Positions 20,316-42,224 of a stretch of 64,000 nucleotides of DNA are shown in pieces. Position 1 is the stretch's first letter. Each line of letters starts with the position of its first letter. The position numbers were made by a program, and so were the translations under genes. The stretch covers positions 434,001 to 498,000 of the forward strand of contig NZ_AYTO01000034.1 of assembly GCF_000507145.1 (NCBI RefSeq), given 5' to 3'. Below the pieces are notes generated by a model. The model saw only the letters and a program-made list of their open reading frames with translations. It searched no databases and was not told where the DNA came from. The DNA is from Bacillus tequilensis KCTC 13622. GTDB lineage: Bacteria; Bacillota; Bacilli; Bacillales; Bacillaceae.

Positions 20316-20747
20316 TTGAAAACAGGTTACTTTTTATTAGAAGACGGCAACAAAATTGAATTTGAACTTTACCCTGAAGCTGCACCGGGTACTGTCGCAA
20401 ACTTTGAAAAGCTTGCGAACGAAGGCTTTTATAACGGCCTTACATTCCACCGAGTGATTCCAGGCTTCGTCAGCCAAGGCGGATGCCCGCATGGAACTGG
20501 CACAGGCGGTCCGGGATACACAATCAAATGTGAAACAGAAGGAAACCCTCATACACATGAAGCGGGTTCTCTTTCGATGGCACATGCTGGAAAAGACACA
20601 GGCGGCAGCCAATTTTTCATAGTCCATGAGCCGCAGCCACATTTGAACGGTGTTCACACTGTGTTCGGTAAAGTAACAAGCGGATTAGAGTTCGCAAAAA
20701 ATATGTCTAACGGTGACGTCATGAAAGAAGTTCGTGTAGAAGGCTAA
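20316..20747 (+). CDS. ppiB: Peptidyl-prolyl cis-trans isomerase PpiB (cyclophilin)
   Basis: A 143-residue cytoplasmic cyclophilin that speeds proline isomerisation during protein folding. The active-site signature is [13 protein letters not shown] (catalytic Arg about residue 43), followed by the loop with [14 protein letters not shown] and the [11 protein letters not shown] segment. Start codon TTG at 20316 follows AAAGTAGG; the in-frame TTG at 20283 has no site and would add an unrelated 11-residue tail. Monocistronic with its own terminator. Confidence 0.95.
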
Positions 20748-20757
20748 TAGGCAGGCA

Positions 20758-20792
20758 GAAGGCTTCCTCGTATCGGGGGGCCTTTTTTATTT
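20758..20792 (+). terminator. Rho-independent terminator of ppiB
   Basis: AAGGCTTCC pairs with GGGGGGCCTT (imperfect) around TCGTATC, followed by T6. Confidence 0.75.
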
Positions 20793-20805
20793 AGCAAAAA
20801 TGTTC

Positions 20806-20838
20806 AATAAAAAAACCGCCCGAGTATGGATGGCGGTT
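20806..20838 (-). terminator. Minus-strand terminator after the GerPF-like gene
   Basis: AACCGCC (20814-20820) pairs with GGCGGTT (20832-20838); on the minus strand the hairpin is followed by T7, so it ends transcription arriving from 20908. Confidence 0.75.
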
Positions 20839-20907
20839 GGCAAACCAGTCGTTTAGTTAGTGGTAAGTAGGGTGACATCTTAAGTGGTCTCTCCTGTAAT
20901 GAATAGA

Positions 20908-21120
20908 CTAAAATGTTTTGGTCACGTTCTGATCCGTAAATTGATGATTAATCATTTTAGCCTTGCTTATAAAGTTATTTTCAAAGACAATTCCTGTGTT
21001 TAAACCTCCGGAACCATACACCGATTTGGACAAAGTTAATGGCCTGATCATAAATGCGCCGCCTACGTTTACTACGCCGTTCCCGGAAATGTTGTTTATA
21101 TTAATAGGATAATCAATCAT
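20908..21120 (-). CDS. ypzD: GerPF/GerPA-like spore germination protein
   Basis: A 70-residue protein whose N-terminal half follows the GerPA/GerPF family pattern: ININNISGNGVVNVGGAFMI and then a KSVYGSGGLNTG segment, compared with the family G-I-x-N-x-x-x-G-V-x-x-GD-x-F-x-I. GerP proteins are small coat components that let germinants reach the receptors. The C-terminal 25 residues are unlike GerPF. The start ATG at 21118-21120 follows AAAGGAGAC on the minus strand. I assign ypzD from remembered position and family, so the symbol is less certain than the family. Confidence 0.75.
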   Translation of the reverse strand: MIDYPININNISGNGVVNVGGAFMIRPLTLSKSVYGSGGLNTGIVFENNFISKAKMINHQFTDQNVTKTF

Positions 21121-21189
21121 ACTATCAAGTCTCCTTTCATCGTATTCTATTTTTTATATGTATTACTGCTAGAGTCAATCAGCATAAAC

Positions 21190-21614
21190 TTATTGGCAAA
21201 AATATTTTAAAGACGGCTGTTTTAATTGATTTATAAAAAATTGCTCAAGAAGAGCTTTCTTTAAAAACTTTCCTAGCTGTGCTTTAAATACGCTGAATGC
21301 GGCAACTGCTTTTCTGGCAAATATAATAGGATCACCCTTCGTTGACTCAAGGTGCATAACCATTGTCCGCGGCTCTTCGATCACCAATAGTTATGCGATG
21401 CTGTATCGGTGATGTTCCGATTGCGAACTGCTTCTCCTAAGTTAAATACTCTGTCGTGGGCGACCTCAAACGAGAAAAATTGGAGCATGAACAAAGGAGA
21501 TGAGGCAGGCACTCTCTTAATATGAAATGTTGAACCGAATAAACATCTGACTCTGGGACCGCCCAACAATTTAGCAAACTCCCTGCACGTATCTTTTGTT
21601 TCTTCGCATTTCAT
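21190..21614 (-). pseudogene. Broken DUF1259 (LppY/LpqO-like) gene remnant
   Basis: Two overlapping minus-strand frames make one damaged gene. The first (21614-21381) contains CREFAKLLGG, SPLFMLQFFSFE and NLGEAV and ends TASHNYW-stop. The second (from 21387) continues with IEEPRTMVMHLES and FARKAVAAF. Together they follow the DUF1259 plan (QFFSFE, LNLGETV, TALHNHWL, EEPRLMY-H-ES, FARK). A one-base loss right after the Trp codon at about 21384 explains the frame change, and about ten residues normally present between NLGE and TALHNHW are missing. DUF1259 has no established function; this copy is likely inactive. Confidence 0.7.
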
Positions 21615-21786
21615 CCTGTTTTGCCTTCTCTTTCATAGGCAGTTTATGTCAAAAAAGAATGTCTGTCTGAAGGGACGAGTATAGGAAGGAAACAGCCCTT
21701 TTGTCTCCGTTTGAGAGCGTGGTGTGCTGATTATAAAAAAAGCGGATAGGGAATAATAAGAAAATAAAAAATTCAAGGAGAGTCTC

Positions 21787-22473
21787 ATGCATGTTTTAAC
21801 GAGTTTGCTCGAACAGTATGGATATATCGTCTTGTTCATTGCCTTGATGTTAGAGCTTATTGCTGTACCCGGGCCGGGGGAATTTCTGATGGGCTATGCC
21901 GGTGTTCTTGTGTTTCAAGGGAAGTTAAACTGGATGTTAAGCATATTAGCGGCTGGATTGGGAAGCTGTGCGGGAGTGAGCATTTCGTATTGGATCGGAT
22001 ACACACTTGGCCCCGCTACAGTGCAAAAATATGGAGAACGAATTCATTTTGGAAAGGACAGGCTGGAAAAAACATCACGCTGGTTTAAGCATTACGGTAA
22101 TAAATTATTGCTCATTGCTTATTTTCTACCAGGCGTGCGCCATATTGCCGGCTATGCTGCAGGCATCACGCGAATCCCTTATAGACTGTATGCCATCTAT
22201 GCGTATTGCGGTGCTTTTCTGTGGGCAGGCACGTTTATTTCCCTTGGAAAGCTACTCGGACCAGAGTGGGAGCAGTTTCATGCCTCAATCAAAAAGTATT
22301 TATTAATCGGGAGCTTGTTTGCTATCATTGTGTTTCTTCTGTTTTATCTGATCAAGACCCAAAAAAGCAAGGTCAGAGAGTTGATGATAGCGGGATTGGT
22401 GAAGGGGGCAAGACAATTTCACACCCTACGCCGTTTAAGGCTGCTGATCGTGTTCACAGCGTTATTTTTTTGA
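21787..22473 (+). CDS. DedA-family membrane protein (N-terminal half of a split DedA-PAP2 gene)
   Basis: A 228-residue DedA/SNARE-associated family protein with about five hydrophobic segments. The family signature is clear in VPGPGEFLMGYAG and in YFLPGVRHIAGYAAG (about residues 115-129). DedA proteins act in recycling of undecaprenyl phosphate and other membrane lipids. The ATG follows CAAGGAGAG. The final 12 residues (LRLLIVFTALFF) enter a hydrophobic segment that stops at TGA 22471-22473, directly after T7; in the -1 frame the same segment continues into a PAP2 domain. The frame therefore looks like the front half of a fusion protein. I do not recognise this as one of the standard 168 genes. 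Confidence 0.8.
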   Translation: MHVLTSLLEQYGYIVLFIALMLELIAVPGPGEFLMGYAGVLVFQGKLNWMLSILAAGLGSCAGVSISYWIGYTLGPATVQKYGERIHFGKDRLEKTSRWFKHYGNKLLLIAYFLPGVRHIAGYAAGITRIPYRLYAIYAYCGAFLWAGTFISLGKLLGPEWEQFHASIKKYLLIGSLFAIIVFLLFYLIKTQKSKVRELMIAGLVKGARQFHTLRRLRLLIVFTALFF

Positions 22474-22480
22474 TTTTTTT
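22465..22480 (+). other. T7-GA-T7 slippery junction
   Basis: Seven T residues (22465-22471), GA, then seven T residues (22474-22480). In the DedA frame it reads TTA TTT TTT TGA; a -1 slip gives TTT TTG ATT TTT TTG and enters the PAP2 frame. Confidence 0.85.
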
Positions 22481-23096
22481 GCTGGTAATGGGAAGTTTAG
22501 TTGAAAATTACATCAATGATGAATTTAAGCCGTTTGACACGATCGTTACACTCGTGGTGACAGTTCTTTTTAACTCACAGTGGAAGTATGGGATGGAAGT
22601 ATTCGGGGCTTTTGCGTCGAGAGATGTTCTATTAGCCGTTATGGTTGTCACTTTTCTATGGATAGTATTCAAAGGGCAAGACCGTAAAATCGAACTCTCT
22701 TTCTTATTTTTCTTAGTCATTGGCGGAGAGCTCTATGAAGAGGGAATCAGACGGCTCTTTCATTCCCTTCATCCTGTTCACGCGCCTTTGGCAAGTCATG
22801 CATTATATTCATTTCCAAGTGAACAAACGTTAACGGCATTTGTCATTTTTGGTTTCTGTGCTTATCTTTTTGTTCGGCATTCACATAAGGCGCGTCTGCA
22901 AGCTGTTGCATTTTTCTTGTTTATGATCGTTTTATTTCTCATAGGGCTGAGCCGTGTGTATTTTAATGAGCAGTATCCGAGTGATGTTGCTGCCGGGTAC
23001 GCCTTCGGCGGTGTTTGGCTGAGTTTGAACGTTTTGGTCATGGAACTCTTCCGTTTCTCCAGAAGATTTAGCAAGCTGAGAAATGAATCAAATTAG
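22470..23096 (+). pseudogene. PAP2-like phosphatase domain in -1 frame of the DedA gene
   Basis: About 208 residues with six hydrophobic segments and the overall PAP2 (phosphatidic acid phosphatase type 2) pattern. The motif regions read SFPSEQTLTAF and GLSRVYFNEQYPSDVAAG where active enzymes have PSGH and SR-x5-H-x3-D, so both catalytic histidines are glutamine (codons at 22824 and 22971). No ribosome site or sensible start codon exists in this frame; it joins the DedA frame at 22465-22480. It could be made only by -1 slippage, or it is the rear of a frameshifted fusion gene. The coordinate 22470 marks the junction, not a proven start. Confidence 0.65.
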
Positions 23097-23213
23097 CATA
23101 TAAAGTACCGGTGAAAAAAGAAGCAAACTTTAAAATTGGTCAATTGATCATAAATGGAATTTTGTAGCAAAATAAATTGATAAAAAAGAAACATTTTGAG
23201 AAGGAGCTGCGAT

Positions 23214-23414
23214 TTGACGAATAGTAAAGGCTGTATAAAATGCGGCAGCACTGAAGCGGGCCAAAAAGAAATAGCTACAACCGGCACGGGATTGTCGAAG
23301 TTGCAGCATAACCGTTTTCTAGTCGTGTACTGTAAAAATTGTGGGTATTCCGAGTTTTATAATAAAGAGTCCTCAACTGCCGGCAATGTATTGGATTTGT
23401 TTTTTGGAGGCTGA
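23214..23414 (+). CDS. Small zinc-ribbon protein
   Basis: A 66-residue protein with two CxxC knuckles, CIKCGS near the N terminus and YCKNCGY near residue 45, which predict a nucleic-acid-binding or structural zinc ribbon. TTG 23214 is the likely start because GAAGGAG (23199-23205) precedes it; the longer frame from 23196 runs through that ribosome site. The next gene starts 3 bases after its stop. A homologous short zinc-ribbon protein (possibly ypzJ) exists near this place in B. subtilis, but I am not certain of the name. Function unknown. Confidence 0.7.
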   Translation: MTNSKGCIKCGSTEAGQKEIATTGTGLSKLQHNRFLVVYCKNCGYSEFYNKESSTAGNVLDLFFGG

Positions 23415-23417
23415 TCC

Positions 23418-23867
23418 ATGATTTCGAACTTCGATGATTTTAAACATATAATGAAAGCAAAACGGGATGCTGGCTATGTCACCTGTGAAATAGGCTGCCG
23501 CAAACATTCCAGTAACCTTCATGAAGTGAATCGTTTCGTTAAGCACCATGGGTATCATGGACTTGAAGATCAATGGAATGCAGTAAATGAACAGACCGCC
23601 CGTAACCTCATGACCTATATACTATCTAAAGATTTAGCATACGAGAGCTCTCTTTCTTCTGAGCCCATCGCTTTTGAATGATGCGATTATTTCTTTCATT
23701 GCTTTTCGGATGATCCTATGTATTATACAAACGCTGATGTTGATGTTCAGTCCGGTGATGTTAGATTAAGCAGCTGGAGTCCTATTACCCAAGCGACATT
23801 TGATGAAGGGCTGGTTGTGATCGACAAGAAAAAGATAGGCATGTTTTGGGTGGAAGATGAAGATTAA
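23418..23867 (+). pseudogene. Gene interrupted by in-frame TGA (possibly ypuD)
   Basis: An ATG at 23418 behind TTTTGGAGG opens an 87-codon frame ending at TGA 23679-23681. The same frame then continues without another stop for 61 codons to TAA 23865-23867, with a coherent acidic C-terminal segment (MYYTNADVDV through KIGMFWVEDED). A single nonsense codon therefore seems to split a protein of about 149 residues. It may correspond to ypuD, which sits here in strain 168; I cannot confirm the intact sequence. Cysteines and histidines (CEIGCRKHSS) are present in the first half. Function unknown. Confidence 0.55.
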
Positions 23868-23961
23868 CCCAGACTGTAAAGCACTTCAATGGTCCTGATG
23901 GGATTTCTTTTCGATTCGTGATAACATAAATTGAAGATTGTTGTTTATTGGAGGAAATCAG

Positions 23962-24513
23962 TTGAAAGCAGAAAATCATTCAAAGAAAAAAACAATAGTA
24001 GAATGGACAAAAGCAATTGTGATTGCTGGCGTTCTCGTTTTGCTCATCCGTCATTTTATTTTTTCGCCGTATATCGTTGATGGTGAGTCCATGGAGCCTA
24101 CTCTGCATAACCGTGAGAGGGTCTTTGTCAATATGACTGTCAAATACATCGGCGAGTTTGATAGAGGAGACATCATCGTATTAAACGGAGATGATGTTCA
24201 CTATGTCAAGCGTATTATCGGCCTGCCCGGAGATACAGTTGAGGTGAAAAGCGACCAGCTTTATATCAACGGGAAAAAGGTAGCTGAGCCTTATTTAGCT
24301 GCTTACAAAAAGATAGCGAATCAGAATGGTGAACATTTGACCGATGATTTCGGGCCGGTGAAAGTGCCTGATGACAAATATTTTGTGATGGGCGATAACC
24401 GGCAGAAATCAATGGACAGCCGCAACGGCCTTGGTCTCTTCACGAAAAAACAAATTGCGGGCACGTCAAAGTTTGTCTTCTTCCCATTTAACGAAATGCG
24501 CAAAACAAATTAG
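23962..24513 (+). CDS. sipS: Type I signal peptidase SipS
   Basis: A 183-residue membrane-anchored Ser-Lys peptidase that removes signal peptides from secreted proteins. One N-terminal transmembrane segment (about 16-34) is followed by the catalytic box DGESMEPTL with S43, then YVKRIIGLPGD with K83, and the C-terminal MGDNRQKSMDSR box. The TTG at 23962 is preferred, with GGAGG eight bases before; the frame from 23938 adds residues without a site. The first third seems less like the 168 protein than the remainder, by memory only. Confidence 0.93.
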   Translation: MKAENHSKKKTIVEWTKAIVIAGVLVLLIRHFIFSPYIVDGESMEPTLHNRERVFVNMTVKYIGEFDRGDIIVLNGDDVHYVKRIIGLPGDTVEVKSDQLYINGKKVAEPYLAAYKKIANQNGEHLTDDFGPVKVPDDKYFVMGDNRQKSMDSRNGLGLFTKKQIAGTSKFVFFPFNEMRKTN

Positions 24514-24519
24514 AATCAT

Positions 24520-24551
24520 GCAGCTTCCTGAACAGGAGGCTGCTTTTTTTA
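24520..24551 (+). terminator. Rho-independent terminator of sipS
   Basis: GCAGCTTCCT pairs with AGGAGGCTGC around GAAC, followed by T7. Confidence 0.85.
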
Positions 24552-24752
24552 TTTGTTTTTTTCGTTCATCCCCCAAAAACAGAACATAAATTCGTATAAC
24601 TATAGAAAAGAAATTTTTGCAGAAATGTGAAACATATTCCCGTAATGCATCGTTATATTAATAATTTACGAGAATTAACGGTTTTTTATTCATGAAAAAA
24701 AGGAATAACTCATATGAATGAAAATACATTCATATTGGCTGGAGGTTTAAAT

Positions 24753-25097
24753 ATGGGAAGAATAAAAACCAAGATTACCATTCTGTTAGTGCTTTTGCTT
24801 TTACTTGCAGGCGGTTATATGTACATAAATGATCTTGAACTGAAGGATGTTCCGACAGCAATTGGACAAACCTTGTCCTCGGAAGAAGAGGAATACACCA
24901 TTCAGGAATATAAAGTGACGGAAATTGACGGCTCAGAGTATCACGGAGAAGCGGAAAACGGCACAAAAATCATCTTCAACGGAAAAAATTTAAATCAGGA
25001 TTTGTCTGATATAAAAGAAGGCGACAAGATTAAGGCATACTTCAGCAAATCAAAGCGGATCGATGGATTAATCAAGGTTGCAAAAGTAAATGATTAA
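24753..25097 (+). CDS. Small exported or membrane-anchored protein before ribD
   Basis: A 114-residue protein with one N-terminal hydrophobic segment (about 9-26) and a soluble acidic remainder. The region 50-110 (IQEYKVTEIDGSEYHGEAEN to KIKAYFSKSKRIDG) looks like a small beta-rich domain of the kind found in DUF3221-like exported proteins. ATG 24753 follows GGAGGTTT closely, so it is preferred over 24714. Position suggests ypzC of B. subtilis; I leave the symbol blank as I am not sure. Function unknown. Confidence 0.75.
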   Translation: MGRIKTKITILLVLLLLLAGGYMYINDLELKDVPTAIGQTLSSEEEEYTIQEYKVTEIDGSEYHGEAENGTKIIFNGKNLNQDLSDIKEGDKIKAYFSKSKRIDGLIKVAKVND

Positions 25098-25099
25098 CG

Positions 25100-25133
25100 G
25101 AACATCACCTTTCGGATCGAAGGGTGATGTTTT
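25100..25133 (+). terminator. Rho-independent terminator before the rib operon
   Basis: AACATCACCTTTCG pairs with CGAAGGGTGATGTT across GAT, followed by TTGCTTTT. Confidence 0.8.
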
Positions 25134-25161
25134 GCTTTTCTCAAATTGTGAGTTTATTTCA

Positions 25162-25190
25162 TTGCACACTTCAAAAAGGATCGCTATAAT
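25162..25190 (+). promoter_or_regulatory. Sigma-A promoter of the riboflavin operon
   Basis: TTGCAC (25162-25167), 17-base spacer, exact TATAAT (25185-25190), about 30 bases before the aptamer. Confidence 0.8.
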
Positions 25191-25220
25191 AGCCAATAAG
25201 GACAAATGAATAAAGATTGT

Positions 25221-25361
25221 ATCCTTCGGGGCAGGGTGGAAATCCCGACCGGCGGTAGTAAAGCGAATGTGCTTTAGAGCCCGTGACCCGTGTGCATAAG
25301 CGCGCGGTGGATTCAGTTTTAAGCTGAAGCCGACAGTGAAAGTCTGGATGGGAGAAGGATG
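25221..25361 (+). promoter_or_regulatory. FMN riboswitch (RFN element) of ribDEAHT
   Basis: The conserved RFN blocks are all present: ATCCTTCGGGGCAGGGTG, AATCCCGACCGGCGGTA, a GCCCGTGACCC segment, GAAGCCGACAGTGAAAGTC and the closing GGATGGGAGAAGGAT that pairs with the first block. With FMN bound, the downstream terminator forms and riboflavin synthesis is switched off. The 395-base gap between 25097 and 25493 is fully accounted for by terminator, promoter, aptamer and attenuator. Confidence 0.96.
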
Positions 25362-25422
25362 ATGAGCCGCTATGCAAATGTTCAAAAATGCATAGTGTTA
25401 TTTCCTATTGCATAAAATGCCT

Positions 25423-25459
25423 AAAGCCCCGGATTTTTTATTAAATTCGGGGCTTTTTT
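25423..25459 (+). terminator. Riboswitch-controlled attenuator upstream of ribD
   Basis: AAAGCCCCG (25423-25431) pairs with CGGGGCTTT, followed by T6; it is the expression platform of the RFN element. Confidence 0.9.
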
Positions 25460-25492
25460 GACGGTAAATAACATAAGAGGGGAGGGAAATAA

Positions 25493-26578
<1,086 letters not shown>

Positions 26579-41639: not shown

Positions 41640-42224
41640 ATGGAAGAAACCTTTCAATTATTATATGATACATATCATCAAGATTTGTACCAATTTTTAT
41701 TTTATATGGTAAAGGATAAAAGCCAGGCAGAAGATCTTCTTCAAGAGGTTTATATCCGTGTATTAAATTCTTATCATACGTTTGAAGGAAGAAGCAGTGA
41801 AAAAACATGGCTTTTGTCGATCGCGCGCCATGTTGCGATTGACTGGTTCCGTAAACAGCAGACGATCAGACAGCGTATACTCGGCACATTTGATTGGGAC
41901 ACACAGGATGTCAGAGATCAGGAATTGCTTCCGGACGAACTTGCGGTTCAACATGAAAATGTCCGGGAAATTTATGCTGCGCTTGACCAATGCACGATTG
42001 ATCAAAGAGCTGTGATTATCTTGCGGTTTATTCAGGGATATTCAATTCAGGAAACAGCCAATGCTCTGCGCTTCTCGGAAAGCAAGGTGAAAACGACCCA
42101 ACACAGGGGACTCAAAGTACTTCGGAAACATATGGAGCTTTTGAGGGAGGAGCTAATGGATGATGAAGTCAGAATGGAACGAAGAACAGATAAAGGAGTT
42201 GTTAAATCAACTTCCGGCAGTTAA
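41640..42224 (+). CDS. sigX: ECF RNA polymerase sigma factor SigX
   Basis: A 194-residue extracytoplasmic-function sigma factor with region 2 (DLYQFLFYMVKDKSQAEDLL, then SEKTWLLSIARHVAIDWFR) and region 4 (IDQRAVIILRFIQGYSIQE). It directs genes altering cell-surface charge, such as dltA and pssA, and cationic peptide resistance. The ribosome site GGAGGGG precedes ATG 41640. Its last 65 bases overlap rsiX, tying synthesis to that of its inhibitor. Confidence 0.97.
   Translation: MEETFQLLYDTYHQDLYQFLFYMVKDKSQAEDLLQEVYIRVLNSYHTFEGRSSEKTWLLSIARHVAIDWFRKQQTIRQRILGTFDWDTQDVRDQELLPDELAVQHENVREIYAALDQCTIDQRAVIILRFIQGYSIQETANALRFSESKVKTTQHRGLKVLRKHMELLREELMDDEVRMERRTDKGVVKSTSGS

What the first reader, a model, noticed from the sequence alone, without database searches (positions are those of the whole stretch)
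22440..22500. DedA and PAP2 domains meet at a T7 slippery tract directly before a stop
The DedA frame ends TTA TTT TTT TGA; a -1 slip on T7 reads through into a complete six-segment PAP2-like domain that has no ribosome site of its own. The stop sits exactly at the domain join, and a second T7 follows after GA. One extra T would give one continuous protein of about 436 residues. This suggests a fused DedA-PAP2 lipid-handling protein whose C-terminal half is switched by slippage (phase variation, transcriptional slippage or programmed -1 frameshifting), or a recent frameshift mutation. The sequence shows the geometry; function is inference.
Basis: partly seen in the sequence, partly recalled or inferred. 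Interest (0 to 1): 0.75.

Follow-up and report, generated by a model that had tools for sequence, protein, structure and literature searches.

The report
Frameshifted DedA-PAP2 membrane gene, recently broken
A Bacillus gene that relatives carry as one long membrane protein is broken in two here by a one-base frame offset at a run of seven T's, most likely an ordinary recent mutation in a gene that near relatives have also lost, although a little read-through by slippage cannot be ruled out.

Summary
The geometry is real. A DedA (VTT) frame, 21787-22473, stops at TGA on a T7 run. A PAP2-like frame, to 23096, follows out of register by one base, without a visible ribosome site.

The halves are one gene: in 77 of 79 loci found through the PAP2-like part both domains share one frame, and the other two are cut by contig starts. 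Nothing marks the tract as a built-in switch. The three nearest relatives have only T4-T5 there, 13 of 94 intact relatives have T7-T8 and are unbroken, and no canonical heptamer or downstream fold was found. 45 of 360 ORFs of this genome carry T7 or longer.

The gene was under purifying selection until recently (dN/dS 0.12 and 0.19 against a remnant in a B. subtilis-type genome). That remnant is decayed by its own deletions, and nine other near relatives lack the gene at this locus. Best reading: a recent frameshift in a dispensable gene. Low-level slippage or strain-level phase variation stays possible, because no second strain or reads were available.

Side finding: the fused PAP2-like domain lacks both catalytic histidines in 89 of 94 relatives, so it is probably no phosphatase.

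The parts
21775..21780 (+). AAGGAG ribosome-binding site of the DedA frame
   Evidence: sequence; duplex energy -8.3 kcal/mol for the region upstream of the ATG
21787..22473 (+). DedA (VTT) frame, 228 aa, ends at TGA
   Evidence: Pfam VTT E 6.2e-20; 58% identical to the DedA part of the intact fused protein of B. nakamurai
22465..22471 (+). T7 run into the stop; place of the frame offset
   Evidence: one of the two longest runs in the gene
22470..22473 (+). TTGA: the TGA stop overlaps a TTG in the PAP2 frame (possible but unsupported re-initiation)
   Evidence: no Shine-Dalgarno upstream
22474..22480 (+). second T7 run, downstream of the stop
22488..23096 (+). PAP2-like half, open to TAG 23094-23096, in another frame than DedA; the catalytic His positions are Gln (PSEQ, SRx5Q)
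   Evidence: Pfam PAP2 E 1.7e-13; 57-58% identical to B. nakamurai; motif columns; profile aligns with PgpB 5jki
21208..23111 (.). segment absent at this locus in nine near relatives; in four of them homology stops at 21203-21207 and resumes at 23112-23121
   Evidence: stretches printed

Best explanation
This is one ancestral gene for a fused membrane protein: an N-terminal DedA (Und-P flippase type) domain and a C-terminal PAP2-fold domain that has lost its catalytic histidines. In this genome it was recently split by a one-base frame offset in one of its two longest homopolymers. The main product is a DedA protein that ends inside the first helix of the PAP2 fold and may still work; the PAP2-like half is not translated, or only in traces from slipped transcripts. 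Shown: the geometry, the fused ancestry, past purifying selection, decay or absence of the gene in near relatives, and the low rate of broken ORFs in the assembly. Inferred: that the change is fixed, that no useful amount of full-length protein is made, and that the protein acted in recycling the undecaprenyl-phosphate carrier.
For: Fused in one frame in 77 of 79 loci found by a scan with the PAP2-like part, the other two cut by contig starts, and in 30 of 30 best matches, a set chosen for full length. All 94 distinct proteins have exactly six residues between the columns where the two window pieces end and begin. In 397 genomes of the order 60 matches span both domains, 55 without any stop; the other five list one stop, but their loci were open across both domains. 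14 further DedA matches were examined: none is followed by a PAP2-like piece in another frame. Against the remnant in G036, dN/dS is 0.12 (0.06-0.23) for the PAP2 part and 0.19 (0.08-0.41) for the DedA part, with dS 0.33 and 0.51 against 0.30-0.67 for six flanking genes: common inheritance and past constraint. That remnant has a ~578-base deletion over the join and four smaller deletions. 9 of 10 near relatives lack the gene at this locus; the tree puts gene-lacking G005 beside G000 and gene-lacking G014 beside G036. Assembly: 2 of 308 comparable ORFs disrupted in 400 kb. The tract is not conserved: T4-T5 in the three nearest relatives. No downstream fold (z +1.1; 176 of 200 shuffles at least as stable).
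Against: Apart from the one offset the gene is intact: both frames are open, so there is no second lesion to prove decay. T7 is the shortest T run at which E. coli RNA polymerase gave detectable slippage in a reporter study (about 5% of control for T7; PMC6260861 section 19), so some full-length protein could be made. Stand-alone DedA matches that reach model positions 230-250 without a PAP2-like piece nearby exist in relatives (L303, L304, L305, L307), so a DedA-only product of this length is not absurd and a two-product scheme is conceivable. Only one genome per species was available. The neutral expectation is weak: a PAP2 frame free of constraint would still lack stops in 5-28% of simulations at 0.05-0.125 substitutions per site. 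Whether the patchy presence reflects repeated loss or several gains is not settled.
Confidence: 0.75

Rival explanations
1. Switch by slippage: the T7 tract varies in length between cells (phase variation), or RNA polymerase slips on it, so that the cell makes mostly DedA-only protein and some full-length protein.
For: T7 is at the threshold for E. coli RNAP slippage (PMC6260861); T7/T8 switching is reported for C. coli flhA and 8/9-base switching for B. subtilis swrA (PMC2831843 passages). Everything but the frame is intact, selection acted until recently, and DedA-only proteins of similar length exist in relatives.
Against: The tract is not conserved: T4-T5 in the three nearest relatives; 13 of 94 intact relatives have T7-T8 in this segment and are not split. 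No split copy among 79, 30 and 14 examined loci (two of the 79 cut by contig starts). T7 or longer occurs in 45 of 360 ORFs. The stop lies inside a predicted helix. Selection against slippery A/T runs is evident at nine bases in a large share of genomes (PMC1088944 passages).
Confidence: 0.12
2. Assembly or sequencing error: the real gene is unbroken.
For: The genome is a draft of 50 contigs and homopolymers are the classic place for such errors. The gene is otherwise intact and was under selection.
Against: Only 2 of 308 comparable G036 ORFs are disrupted in 400 kb of this contig (one of them a 122-aa ORF of doubtful reality with an extra T in a T run), although 169 of 360 ORFs have runs of 7 or more. 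Homopolymers are not generally misread here.
Confidence: 0.08
3. Split but working gene pair: the overlapping TTGA lets ribosomes that stop after DedA re-initiate and make the PAP2-like half separately.
For: A TTG in the PAP2 frame overlaps the TGA (22470-22473), a usual geometry of translational coupling.
Against: No Shine-Dalgarno (-4.6 kcal/mol against a random median of -3.7), though a start in the riboflavin genes scored no better. No relative examined has the domains as two adjacent frames. The break is inside a predicted helix.
Confidence: 0.03
4. Programmed -1 ribosomal frameshifting at the T7.
For: P-site UUU can re-pair with UUU one base back when TGA is in the A site (sequence).
Against: The in-phase heptamer A UUU UUU is not of the X XXY YYZ type, there is no downstream fold, and the tract is not conserved in the three nearest relatives.
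Confidence: 0.02

Closest known systems
DedA-PAP2 fusion proteins (COG0586 subfamily fusions; P. aeruginosa PA4011)
   Same: N-terminal VTT/DedA domain and C-terminal PAP2-like domain in one protein; such fusions are noted in PMC10127716 (passages) and PMC12893004 (passages).
   Different: The window copy is split by a frame offset. The relatives studied here mostly lack the catalytic histidines; I did not check this for PA4011.
PgpB/YodM of B. subtilis (PDB 5jki), PAP2 phosphatase
   Different: PSGH and SRx5H of 5jki are PSEQ and SRx5Q in the window; 0 of 94 fused relatives carry either full motif, against 26 of 26 other PAP2 frames of the genus held as loci.
B. subtilis swrA and C. coli flhA, phase variation at homopolymers
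   Same: A short A or T run decides whether the frame stays open.
   Different: Those are reported to vary at measured rates (PMC2831843 passages); here no variation has been seen and the tract is not conserved.
Singleton frameshifted genes of the GeneTack survey (PMC3711429)
   Same: One genome, homologues unbroken; that paper calls such cases likely indel mutations or sequencing errors (passages).
   Different: Nothing notable.

Membership tests
DedA (VTT) family | VTT domain over most of the N-terminal half | tested here: met
   Pfam PF09335 E 6.2e-20, residues 30-155; 59 of 59 relatives scanned match
DedA (VTT) family | undecaprenyl-phosphate flippase activity | not testable with these tools
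   proposed for other DedA proteins (PMC10127716, PMC12826051 passages); the UptA equivalog models match below their cut-offs (114.6 of 250 bits and 83.8 of 300)
PAP2 phosphatase | PAP2 fold | tested here: met
PAP2 phosphatase | catalytic histidines in PSGH and SRx5H | tested here: not met
   window has PSEQ and SRx5Q; both His absent in 89 of 94 relatives, full motifs in 0 of 94; control 26 of 26 other PAP2 frames have both. Motif definition recalled, positions checked on 5jki
homopolymer phase-variable gene | tract length varies between cells or strains | not tested
   one genome per species held; no reads
homopolymer phase-variable gene | tract kept in related copies | tested here: not met
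   T4-T5 in the three nearest relatives
programmed -1 ribosomal frameshifting | X XXY YYZ heptamer in phase, stimulatory fold, conserved site | tested here: not met
   A UUU UUU in phase (heptamer rule recalled); z +1.1; not conserved
transcriptional slippage | T run long enough to slip | tested here: inconclusive
   T7 is the shortest T run slipping detectably in E. coli (PMC6260861); selection against runs is evident at nine bases in many genomes (PMC1088944)
pseudogene | intact architecture in relatives and a disabling lesion here | tested here: met
pseudogene | relaxed selection after the lesion | tested here: inconclusive
   no conspecific copy; dN/dS against the G036 remnant reflects mostly the time before the breaks

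The most novel reading that the evidence does not exclude
The C-terminal half is not a phosphatase but a histidine-less PAP2-fold module that senses or presents the lipid carrier to the attached DedA flippase, in some relatives next to an ECF sigma/anti-sigma pair; and in this species slippage at T7 decides what share of the flippase carries that module.
Probability: 0.07. Interest if true: 0.65.

Novelty: new member of a known kind. Interest (0 to 1): 0.3.

Why it matters
As it stands it is an early snapshot of gene loss: an otherwise intact fused membrane gene just broken in one species, already a remnant in a related lineage and absent in others. If slippage were shown, it would be a switch on the recycling of the cell-wall lipid carrier. 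The more lasting lead is the family: DedA proteins fused to a PAP2 fold without catalytic histidines, which argues against the simple idea that the fusion dephosphorylates the carrier before flipping it (an idea offered in PMC10127716, passage seen).

Tried and rejected
Separate genes in relatives: not found. Recent import of the gene by G000 alone: not supported, since dS against G036 is like that of the flanks. A viral carrier: one scan of viral contigs with the PAP2 piece found no relative. A plasmid copy: the only plasmid record matched, pGMrib of B. subtilis (CP045673), shows the same remnant as G036, with identical alignment figures. Stimulatory RNA fold, Rfam element, terminator: no fold; the only Rfam match in 20700-25500 is the FMN riboswitch at 25218-25363; no terminator-like site and 5 promoter-like sites against 3.1 expected in 21500-23260. 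The first disruption filter flagged 31 of 326 and 24 of 319 ORFs, many by stops close to the ORF start; it was replaced by the measure. A first motif control caught only 8 of 26 loci because of strand; redid all 26. Papers: no paper on histidine loss in DedA-PAP2 fusions or on their link to ECF sigma factors turned up in the listings of searches (one found nothing); this is no proof of absence. A search for names of the B. subtilis remnant ORFs gave nothing used.

Full report
WHAT IS THERE. The DedA frame runs from ATG 21787 (AAGGAG at 21775-21780) to TGA 22471-22473, 228 residues. It ends TTA TTT TTT TGA over a T7 run at 22465-22471; a second T7 follows at 22474-22480. The next frame, out of register by one base, is open through a PAP2-like domain to TAG 23094-23096. 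Pfam gives VTT (E 6.2e-20) and PAP2 (E 1.7e-13). Possible starts on the PAP2 side pair with the ribosome no better than random positions do; one start among the riboflavin genes (26580) scored just as low, so this alone proves little. The second T7 lies after the stop, so slippage there could not bypass it.

ONE GENE ELSEWHERE. In the family, 3 of 80 genomes have a full-length open frame: G016, G002, G073. In 397 genomes of the order, 91 have a match to the fused-protein profile at E 1e-40 or better. 60 listed matches span both domains; 55 of these list no stop and five list one. Those five loci were open across both domains; I did not locate the listed stop. A scan of named genomes with the PAP2-like part gave 142 relatives, of which the best 80 (79 loci) were kept, led by Scopulibacillus daqui (61%), B. 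nakamurai (58%) and Cytobacillus citreus (58%). In 77 of these 79 both domains share one frame; L169 and L180 are cut by contig starts. The same holds for 30 of 30 loci, but these were its best full-length matches. The two sets overlap in part; 94 proteins were distinct. In all 94 exactly six residues lie between the columns where the window's DedA piece ends and its PAP2 piece begins. As a check on that choice I fetched 14 of the DedA-type matches that do not reach the PAP2 end: none has a PAP2-like piece downstream in another frame. Three had a PAP2-like match otherwise placed: on the other strand (L306), upstream and weak (L309), or the tail of a neighbouring fused gene (L311).

In favour of slippage: E. 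coli RNA polymerase gave no detectable slippage below seven T's, and about 5% of control signal at T7 (PMC6260861, section 19 read). T8-to-T7 and T7-to-T8 changes in C. coli flhA are quoted at 3e-4 and 7e-6 (PMC2831843 passages). A trace of full-length product is therefore plausible without any design. Also, DedA matches that reach model positions 230-250 without a PAP2-like piece occur in relatives (L303, L304, L305, L307, open frames of 245-260 residues), so the truncated DedA may well work on its own.

HISTORY OF THE LOCUS. Among ten near relatives (87.1-93.5% identical over flanking genes), one (G036, of the length of B. subtilis 168, recalled) has a remnant at the same place: a deletion of about 578 bases over the join and deletions of 12, 2, 1 and 1 bases. 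The other nine lack the gene at this locus; in four (G005, G034, G037, G011) homology stops at 21203-21207 and resumes at 23112-23121. In the tree of seven flanking genes G000 pairs with gene-lacking G005 (support 0.996) and G036 with gene-lacking G014 (0.963). Repeated loss fits; several gains are not excluded. Between window and remnant, dN/dS is 0.12 (PAP2 part, 160 codons) and 0.19 (DedA part, 75 codons), bootstrap ranges 0.06-0.23 and 0.08-0.41; six flanking genes range from 0.01 to 0.14, and their dS (0.30-0.67) is like that of the gene (0.33 and 0.51). Codons with gaps were dropped (2 in the PAP2 and 6 in the DedA part). Of 14 amino-acid differences in the PAP2 part the family favours the window residue in 8 and the remnant's in 6; in the DedA part 9 and 4 with one tie. 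So both lineages seem to have kept the protein working for most of the time since they parted, and both breaks look recent. A neutral frame of this length would escape stops in 5-28% of simulations, so the open frame alone is weak evidence.

ASSEMBLY. Of 308 comparable G036 ORFs, 2 are disrupted in 400 kb of G000; in the reverse test 2 of 304. Neither of the two in G000 is a clear gene break: one is 0.79 open, just under the cut-off of 0.8, and one is a 122-aa ORF with an extra T in a T run. The assembly does not misread homopolymers in general; this single place remains unverified.

THE PAP2-LIKE DOMAIN. PgpB (5jki) has SFPSGH and SRVYLGVHFVTD where the profile of four fused proteins has PSEQ and no His. 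The second-motif His column holds Q in 59, E in 17 and H in 4 of 94; the third-motif column Q in 60, E in 23 and H in 1. Both are absent in 89 of 94, and neither full motif occurs in any of 94. All 26 other PAP2 frames of the genus held as loci carry both. The domain is therefore probably not a phosphatase, although the aspartate of the third motif is kept in 79 of 94. In 20 of 79 loci an ECF sigma factor and a protein of about 277 residues lie nearby, often directly downstream, with a zf-HC2 anti-sigma in 19 of them, pointing to envelope stress in those species. The window copy has no such neighbours; the nearest ECF-like match in the window is at 41643-42152.

VERDICT. A real frame offset in a known kind of fused gene, most likely a recent mutation that cuts off its C-terminal half, in a gene that near relatives lack or have let decay. 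DedA alone may still be made. The slippage reading is possible but unsupported; reads and further strains would settle it.

Noticed in passing
window 22488-23096 and loci L134-L242: The PAP2-like domain fused to DedA lacks both catalytic histidines (window: PSEQ, SRx5Q) in 89 of 94 relatives: a likely pseudo-phosphatase family.
   Followed up: partly
L138, L140, L144, L148, L149, L156, L158 and others (20 of 79 loci): The fused gene lies near an ECF sigma factor, mostly with a zf-HC2 anti-sigma, and a conserved protein of about 277 aa without a Pfam match (three copies scanned); L138 and L144 also have a second DedA gene there.
   Followed up: partly
L107 2810-4266: In G073 two ORFs that look like a response regulator and a sensor kinase follow the fused DedA-PAP2 gene directly (by look); a response-regulator match lies in 9 of 79 other loci.
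   Followed up: no
L303 579-1166, L304 1724-2314, L305 2715-3305, L307 2577-3164: DedA genes that extend past the domain into the stretch before the PAP2 fold but have no PAP2-like piece nearby: natural DedA-only forms or old truncations.
   Followed up: partly
L037 1500-2560 (G036) and L035 (CP045673, pGMrib): A B. subtilis-type genome and a riboflavin plasmid of a B. subtilis strain share the same decayed remnant of this gene, with identical alignment figures.
   Followed up: partly
window 25218-25363: FMN riboswitch ahead of the riboflavin genes.
   Followed up: no
window 20908-21120, minus strand: Small ORF of 70 aa that looks like a GerPF-type spore protein (name recalled, not searched).
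   Followed up: no
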